A program made the position numbers and the translations under genes. From positions 1 through 46,982 of IMG/VR virus record IMGVR_UViG_3300010157_000102: a DNA stretch of 46,982 nucleotides, one strand, 5' to 3'. The DNA is from a virus. The notes under the pieces are model-generated. The model worked only from the letters and a program-made list of their open reading frames with translations. It was not told the DNA's origin and did no database searches. Shown here piece by piece: positions 4,609-4,727 of this stretch (the stretch's first letter is position 1; every line of letters begins with the position of its first letter).

Positions 4609-4727
4609 CTTATTACTTATTCATTACATACATTGTAACTTCAAAGCCAAATCTCATTTCTGTTGCTGATGGTTTTGTCCACATAATCTTCTCCTAATTG
4701 TTTGTCCATTATTGGACTTATTACTTA
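4609..4727. repeat. 11-bp direct repeat flanking pqqA
   Basis: CTTATTACTTA occurs at 4609-4619, overlapping the pqqA stop, and again at 4717-4727, 33 bp upstream of its start. Next to the copies are related palindromes CTTAG-N5-CTAAG (4587-4601) and CTTAGGACTAAG (4724-4735). The arrangement could mark how the gene was acquired, or could be chance in AT-rich DNA. Confidence 0.4.
4613..4684 (-). CDS. pqqA: PqqA, coenzyme PQQ precursor peptide (23 aa)
   Basis: PqqA is the ribosomal peptide substrate of PQQ synthesis: with PqqD presenting it, the radical SAM enzyme PqqE links a Glu to a Tyr, and later steps excise and oxidise them to the cofactor. Visible here are MWTKP at residues 1-5, Arg11, Gly13, then FEVTMY at 14-19, and an NK end at position 23. 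Length, the Glu15-x3-Tyr19 pair and the GFEVTMY core match full-length beta/gammaproteobacterial PqqA (the Klebsiella peptide is also 23 residues with Glu15 and Tyr19). AGGAG lies 6 nt before the ATG. Terminators on both sides make it a separate unit, but I find no convincing promoter. No pqqB-E is in the window, so the peptide would feed host enzymes. PQQ is the cofactor of methanol dehydrogenase, which points to a methylotrophic host. Confidence 0.88.
   Translation of the reverse strand: [23 protein letters not shown]

What the first reader, a model, noticed from the sequence alone, without database searches (positions are those of the whole stretch)
4613..4684. A phage-encoded PqqA: precursor peptide of the methanol dehydrogenase cofactor
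A 23-codon frame with an excellent ribosome binding site encodes what looks like a complete PqqA: MWTKP start, R11, then GFEVTMY with Glu15 and Tyr19. No other PQQ gene is in the window, so the phage would supply the consumable substrate of the host PqqB-E pathway. This may sustain PQQ-dependent methanol or sugar oxidation during infection, analogous in logic to phage psbA or pmoC. I am not aware of PqqA being an established phage auxiliary gene; its size hides it from most gene callers. It also predicts the host: a PQQ-making proteobacterium, probably a methylotroph.
Basis: partly seen in the sequence, partly recalled or inferred. Interest (0 to 1): 0.93.

Follow-up and report, generated by a model that had tools for sequence, protein, structure and literature searches.

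The report
Phage gene for methanol-cofactor precursor PqqA
A T4-like virus of methanol-eating bacteria carries a tiny 23-amino-acid gene for PqqA, the peptide the host uses up to make the cofactor PQQ; the same overlooked gene sits in every methylotroph phage isolate found in the phage database and in well over a hundred environmental phage contigs, so these viruses probably prop up host methanol oxidation during infection.

Summary
The frame is real. On the minus strand at 4613-4684 it encodes [23 protein letters not shown], with an AGGAG ribosome site. It scores twice the curated cut-off of both PqqA models (Pfam 43.3 against 21.1 bits; NCBIfam equivalog 40 against 20). The contig is a T4-like myovirus fragment whose portal is nearest to methylophage Melnitz. 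The peptide is 22/23 identical to the PqqA of Methylophilaceae, which carry 1-12 pqqA copies per genome (100/100 genomes). Every methylophage detected among 50,697 phage records (Venkman, P19250A, MEP301, MEP401/402, four Melnitz) has pqqA, unannotated. Glu15 and Tyr19 are invariant even when the search leaves them free. Substitution is mainly synonymous. Phage pqqA is alone: 0 of 50 records hold PqqE or methanol dehydrogenase above cut-off. In the window's lineage it occupies a variable cargo slot between regA and hsp20; it is absent from many relatives, was swapped between near-identical phages, and in two contigs is followed by ahpC, as in hosts. Best reading: a mobile auxiliary gene supplying the consumable PQQ precursor. 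One earlier paper reports a phage pqqA (Lake Baikal). The physiological benefit is inferred, not shown.

The parts
4613..4684 (-). pqqA, 23 codons, [23 protein letters not shown]
   Evidence: Pfam PF08042 43.3 bits (cut-off 21.1) and TIGR02107 40 bits (cut-off 20); pN/pS about 0.22-0.36 among 126 viral alleles
4691..4695 (-). ribosome binding site AGGAG, 6 nt before ATG
   Evidence: read directly; an SD-like motif in 137 of 138 viral pqqA loci
4722..4728 (-). CTAAGTA, 44 nt before the pqqA start; possible late-type promoter
   Evidence: One base from the (A/C)TAAATA motif; ATAAATA occurs 6 times on the coding strand, all upstream of genes, and 0 times on the other strand. TAAGTA recurs at this place in several relatives. 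Suggestive only.
4759..4780 (-). hairpin ATCATTAG/CTAATGAT followed by T-rich sequence, between orf74 and pqqA; possible terminator
   Evidence: sequence and fold; recurs in relatives; not flagged by the consensus terminator scan
4498..4606 (-). conserved structured non-coding element between pqqA and hsp20, ending in a GC-TTCG hairpin (4508-4526) and a T-rich run
   Evidence: RNAalifold consensus over 16 relatives with three hairpins and paired changes; no Rfam match at gathering score
3955..4470 (-). Hsp20 chaperone gene, downstream border of the cargo slot
   Evidence: phrog_432, E=3.4e-39; synteny
4783..5007 (-). orf74, small conserved protein directly upstream of pqqA
   Evidence: conserved position in relatives; no PHROG
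4962..5381 (-). RegA translational repressor, upstream border of the cargo slot
   Evidence: phrog_242, E=2.7e-61
26647..28362 (-). gp20 portal protein; places the phage among T4-like viruses, nearest to Melnitz
   Evidence: phrog_213; 55.5% identical to Melnitz portal, best of 2,505 records

Best explanation
The gene is a functional phage copy of pqqA. The phage makes a 23-residue PqqA that the host PqqD binds and the host PqqE cross-links between Glu15 and Tyr19; host proteases, PqqB and PqqC then finish PQQ. One peptide is consumed per PQQ molecule, so the phage brings only the consumable and uses the host enzymes. This probably keeps PQQ-dependent methanol oxidation (XoxF/MxaF), the main energy source of Methylophilaceae, supplied during infection. 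The gene is a mobile accessory cassette: it entered several phage lineages from methylotroph hosts and is exchanged by recombination. Shown here: family membership, conservation, distribution, absence of other PQQ genes, and cassette exchange. Inferred: processing by host PqqDE, expression timing, and fitness benefit.
For: Two curated models at twice cut-off. Hosts with near-identical PqqA are Methylophilaceae, all 100 sampled family genomes carry pqqA in 1-12 copies, and the literature gives 3-12 pqqA beside a single pqqBCDE set (PMC4109929), i.e. dosage of the precursor alone. Phage hits in INPHARED are confined to methylophages plus one Venkman-like metagenomic podovirus, once a misfiled Acinetobacter chromosome is removed. 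At least 119 IMG/VR contigs. E15 and Y19 kept in all matches of a scan that left them free; R11, free in both patterns, 126/126. pN/pS 0.355 at codons not fixed by the search pattern, equal to host copies at 0.359. 0/50 records with methanol dehydrogenase, 0/50 with PqqE above cut-off. Exactly one pqqA in each of 43 larger records. Phages L027 and L099 repeat the host pqqA-ahpC arrangement. Two near-identical phages (97-98% flanks) differ by 16/72 bases in pqqA alone, 5 residues, keeping E and Y.
Against: No expression or biochemical evidence. Hosts already have several pqqA copies, so precursor may not be limiting. The gene is absent from many close relatives: found in 14 of 60 RegA-related loci and 9 of 66 Hsp20-related loci examined, and in 1 of 24 larger RegA-related records. 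The hosts of those relatives are unknown, so the expected link between pqqA and methylotroph hosts is untested within this lineage.
Confidence: 0.82

Rival explanations
1. Decoy: the phage peptide competes with host PqqA for PqqD/PqqE and lowers or reroutes PQQ synthesis, for example to shift host redox metabolism.
For: It would be made in an infected cell and binds the same machinery; one search shows all PqqD/PqqE-facing motifs are present.
Against: A decoy should lose or alter Glu or Tyr; none of the matches did in a scan free at both sites nor in the flank-based samples. The window peptide is one residue from the host peptide.
Confidence: 0.05
2. Passenger: a host gene captured by chance, not used by the phage.
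For: Presence is patchy among close relatives; some phages carry it together with ahpC, as in hosts.
Against: Synonymous-biased substitution, an SD-like motif at 137/138 loci, 23-25 codon frames without decay in every locus, recurrence in unrelated lineages and replacement by another intact allele rather than loss.
Confidence: 0.06
3. Co-opted peptide: the PqqA sequence is used for another purpose, such as a signal or binding partner, unrelated to PQQ.
For: One study links a PqqA-annotated RiPP family with phage interactions by co-expression (PMC11118758).
Against: Conservation pattern position by position equals that of host PqqA; distribution follows PQQ-dependent hosts among isolates.
Confidence: 0.05
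4. Host DNA misbinned as virus.
For: Two database hits labelled Acinetobacter phage are host DNA; the one inspected has a pqqABCDE operon.
Against: In the window the gene lies between RegA, orf74 and Hsp20 of a T4-like genome, with the same order in further contigs, and it is present in sequenced isolates.
Confidence: 0.01

Closest known systems
PqqA of Methylophilaceae (PF08042 / TIGR02107)
   Same: 22/23 residues identical to [23 protein letters not shown]; same length, ribosome site, GFEVT-M-Y core and orphan (non-operon) setting as the dispersed host copies.
   Different: Encoded in a lytic T4-like phage genome in a regA-hsp20 cargo slot; A6S change.
PqqA reported in Lake Baikal T4-like methylophage population VP_266 (PMC7678222)
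   Same: Phage-encoded PqqA, T4-like, inferred Methylophilaceae host.
   Different: That contig also carries methanol dehydrogenase; none of the 50 records searched here does. It was one contig; here the gene is shown in several unrelated lineages and in isolates whose three papers checked do not mention it.
Phage psbA (cyanophages) and pmoC (methanotroph phages) auxiliary genes (from general knowledge, not tested here)
   Same: Phage supplies the host energy system with the part that turns over, leaving the rest to the host.
   Different: Those are subunits of the catalytic complex; PqqA is a consumed peptide precursor of a small-molecule cofactor.

Membership tests
PqqA (PF08042 / TIGR02107) | Score above the curated family cut-off | tested here: met
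   43.3 vs 21.1 bits and 40 vs 20 bits
PqqA (PF08042 / TIGR02107) | Glu and Tyr with three residues between (E-x3-Y), cross-linked by PqqE | tested here: met
   E15 and Y19 in EVTMY; invariant in relatives. Positions are Glu16/Tyr20 in the numbering of PMC10906245.
PqqA (PF08042 / TIGR02107) | Short peptide of about 22-29 residues, N-terminal leader, conserved Arg and Gly before Glu | tested here: met
   23 residues, R11, G13
PqqA (PF08042 / TIGR02107) | Converted to PQQ by PqqD/PqqE/PqqB/PqqC | not testable with these tools
   needs in vitro or infection experiments
PqqA (PF08042 / TIGR02107) | Linked to pqqBCDE (usual, not defining: Methylophilaceae have orphan copies) | tested here: not met
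   no PqqE in the record; the host family also has dispersed pqqA copies with one pqqBCDE set (PMC4109929), so this is not a defining failure
Phage auxiliary metabolic gene | Host-derived metabolic gene within a bona fide phage genome | tested here: met
   T4-like replication and structural genes around it; host-like peptide; pqqA-ahpC capture in relatives
Phage auxiliary metabolic gene | Maintained under selection | tested here: met
   pN/pS 0.22-0.36, pooled pairwise with partial ascertainment; free codons analysed apart
Phage auxiliary metabolic gene | Alters host metabolism to the phage's benefit | not testable with these tools
   needs a deletion phage and PQQ/methanol assays

The most novel reading that the evidence does not exclude
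pqqA is a host-tracking mobile cassette that nearly every phage of Methylophilales must carry, whatever its lineage. PQQ precursor supply is then the energy bottleneck of an infected methylotroph, and a 23-codon gene skipped by gene callers marks the host of uncultured phages.
Probability: 0.45. Interest if true: 0.85.

Novelty: new member of a known kind. Interest (0 to 1): 0.72.

Why it matters
It would be a case where a phage supplies only the consumable substrate of a cofactor pathway. All methylophage isolates found in the phage collection carry the gene but the records inspected do not annotate it, so a shared feature of methylotroph infection has been overlooked. The isolates (Venkman on strain H5P1, Melnitz on H5P1, P19250A on IMCC19250) make the idea testable now. 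The gene may also serve as a host marker: the large sets of phages of other PQQ-making hosts such as Klebsiella and Acinetobacter gave no genuine phage hits.

Tried and rejected
First pattern scan of viral contigs returned nothing because the pattern was one base short; repeated correctly. The search for related loci refuses a 23-residue query. Acinetobacter phage MD-2021a hits rejected as phage: a host contig with pqqBCDE and housekeeping genes. Search for methanol dehydrogenase and PqqE in 50 phage records: none above cut-off; weak radical-SAM hits in three records at 17-28 bits against 381. Sigma-70 promoter scan near pqqA gave no more sites than shuffles. Gene-sharing clusters at three shared ORFs merge nearly everything and are not a clean lineage split; isolate-by-isolate counts used instead. 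Rfam: no match at gathering score; weak ROSE_3 match below cut-off. Literature search for methylophages MEP431-434 found nothing, and they were not seen in the phage collection. No structure prediction was run: a 23-residue peptide would not be informative.

Full report
Observation. The frame lies on the minus strand at 4613-4684 and reads [23 protein letters not shown], with AGGAG six bases before ATG. hmmscan gives Pfam PqqA at 43.3 bits against a cut-off of 21.1 and the NCBIfam equivalog TIGR02107 at 40 against 20. A degenerate DNA pattern for PqqA matches once in the window and never in 100 shuffles.

Setting. The window is a virus record of 46,982 bases. Its genes are T4-like: RegA, clamp loader and clamp, gp46/47, gp55 sigma factor, UvsW-type helicase, gp23, gp20, gp18, gp17, plus MazG, Hsp20, a tryptophan-halogenase-like protein and CobS/CobT-like proteins. 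The portal is closest to methylophage Melnitz at 55.5%, ahead of Pelagibacter phage Mosig at 54.8% and cyanophages. pqqA sits between orf74, which follows RegA, and Hsp20, all on one strand.

Host side. It returned mainly Methylophilaceae (Methylophilus, Methylotenera, Methylovorus, Methylopumilus, OM43 strain LSUCC0135) and Methylophaga. Many Methylophilaceae share [23 protein letters not shown], one residue from the window. All 100 genomes sampled from that family carry pqqA, in 1 to 12 copies. A published survey gives 3-12 pqqA copies beside one set of pqqBCDE (PMC4109929), and a PQQ-producing strain has five copies, two of them highly expressed (PMC9851590).

Phage side. tblastn against 50,697 phage records at E up to 10, with two different PqqA queries, finds nine methylophage isolate records, one metagenomic podovirus that shares 22 ORFs with Venkman, and two mislabelled Acinetobacter contigs. 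The isolates span a Venkman type, P19250A, MEP301, MEP401/402 (Zobellviridae) and Melnitz (Kyanoviridae). In the deposits inspected pqqA is not annotated; two carry an antisense hypothetical gene in its place. The three isolate papers checked do not mention it. Methylophages MEP431-434 and a few others are named in the taxonomy but were not seen in the collection, so completeness among all known isolates is untested. In IMG/VR the pattern scan hit its limit at 119 stretches; a second scan that left the Glu and Tyr codons free also hit 119, and all matches in the fetched loci had Glu and Tyr. Among 138 viral loci, 137 have an SD-like motif, and all frames are 23-25 codons. A K4T variant missed by the pattern exists in several contigs, so the count is a lower bound.

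Selection. Among 126 distinct viral alleles, pS is 0.69 and pN 0.245 at codons not fixed by the search pattern, a ratio of 0.355; host copies give 0.359. R11 was free in the pattern and is invariant. These are pooled pairwise values near synonymous saturation, so the ratio is a rough guide.

Alone in the phage. Across the window, six reference phage genomes and 43 larger viral records, none has PQQ alcohol dehydrogenase and none has PqqE above cut-off. The 43 larger records hold exactly one pqqA each. PqqB, PqqC and PqqD were not searched separately; no PHROG hit in the window suggests them.

Mobility. Starting from RegA rather than pqqA, 14 of 60 related loci examined carry pqqA, always 100-420 bases after RegA on the same strand; many relatives at up to 94% RegA identity lack it, and only 1 of 24 larger records of this set has it anywhere in the held sequence. 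Starting from Hsp20, 9 of 66 have it. Two phages with 97.4% and 98.3% identical flanks differ at 16 of 72 bases in pqqA, giving five residue changes while keeping R11, E15 and Y19. Other T4-like contigs have pqqA near gp23 or after gp17, and Melnitz has it beside a tRNA-Leu. Between Venkman and the podovirus MW202481, the only stretch megablast finds in 20 kb is 85 bases covering pqqA. In L027 and L099, pqqA is followed by an AhpC peroxiredoxin (62-65% identical), the same order as at host loci of Methylobacillus and Methylophaga; this points to capture from a methylotroph.

Mechanism. From established PQQ biochemistry (PMC10906245), PqqD binds the PqqA leader and PqqE cross-links its Glu and Tyr; both sites are intact. 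Since each PQQ uses up one PqqA, supplying only the peptide is the least costly way to raise flux if precursor is short. Whether it is short in an infected cell is not known. A CTAAGTA element 44 bases upstream resembles the (A/C)TAAATA motif of this phage, and hairpins lie on either side of the gene, so a transcript of its own is plausible but unproven.

Known or new. Phage PqqA was reported once in a Baikal T4-like contig together with methanol dehydrogenase (PMC7678222), and listed among viral genes of reservoir sediments (PMC13188868). What is added here is the spread across unrelated methylophage lineages including isolates, the absence of other PQQ genes, the intact catalytic residues, and direct signs of cassette exchange. 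I therefore call it a new member of a known but barely recognised kind, with high practical interest because cultured systems exist.

Noticed in passing
window 4498-4606, minus strand; also L351, L352, L353, L359, L360, L366-L369, L373, L375-L377, L387: A conserved structured non-coding element just upstream of hsp20 (CCTTAGGA...GTCGCTGGAG...GTAACCAGC...CCTTCGGG), with compensatory changes in its hairpins across 16 relatives and present with or without pqqA. No Rfam family at gathering score; a weak ROSE_3 heat-sensor match (16.3 against 43 bits) lies at 4465-4529. Candidate phage RNA thermometer or leader.
   Followed up: partly
window regA-hsp20 interval (4470-5007) and RegA/Hsp20-related loci L351-L398, L432-L510: The regA-orf74-hsp20 interval is a variable cargo slot in this T4-like group: pqqA, pqqA plus ahpC, other inserts or nothing.
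   Followed up: partly
L027/L368 and L099: Phage AhpC-type peroxiredoxin genes directly after pqqA, 62-65% identical to Methylobacillus AhpC, matching the pqqA-ahpC order of host genomes.
   Followed up: partly
CAKLQF020000010.1 and CAKLQH020000055.1 (INPHARED): Records labelled Acinetobacter phage MD-2021a; the first is a bacterial chromosome contig with a pqqABCDE operon, ppk and fur, and the second has the same pqqA match.
   Followed up: partly
L243 (genome contigs CAKZOO010000028.1): A contig binned as a Flavobacteriaceae MAG carries MEP301-like phage genes and a Methylophilaceae-type pqqA; it is probably a methylophage contig.
   Followed up: partly
L010, L015, L017, L021, L025, L031, L038, L042, L080, L120: A second phage PqqA group (like [23 protein letters not shown]) differs from the Methylophilaceae type and may mark phages of another PQQ-making host.
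   Followed up: no
L028 (IMGVR_UViG_3300023174_000036, 356,312 bases): A jumbo-size viral contig also carries one pqqA.
   Followed up: no
window 5419-6612, minus strand: Tryptophan-halogenase-like protein (phrog_2928) between RegA and gp62.
   Followed up: no
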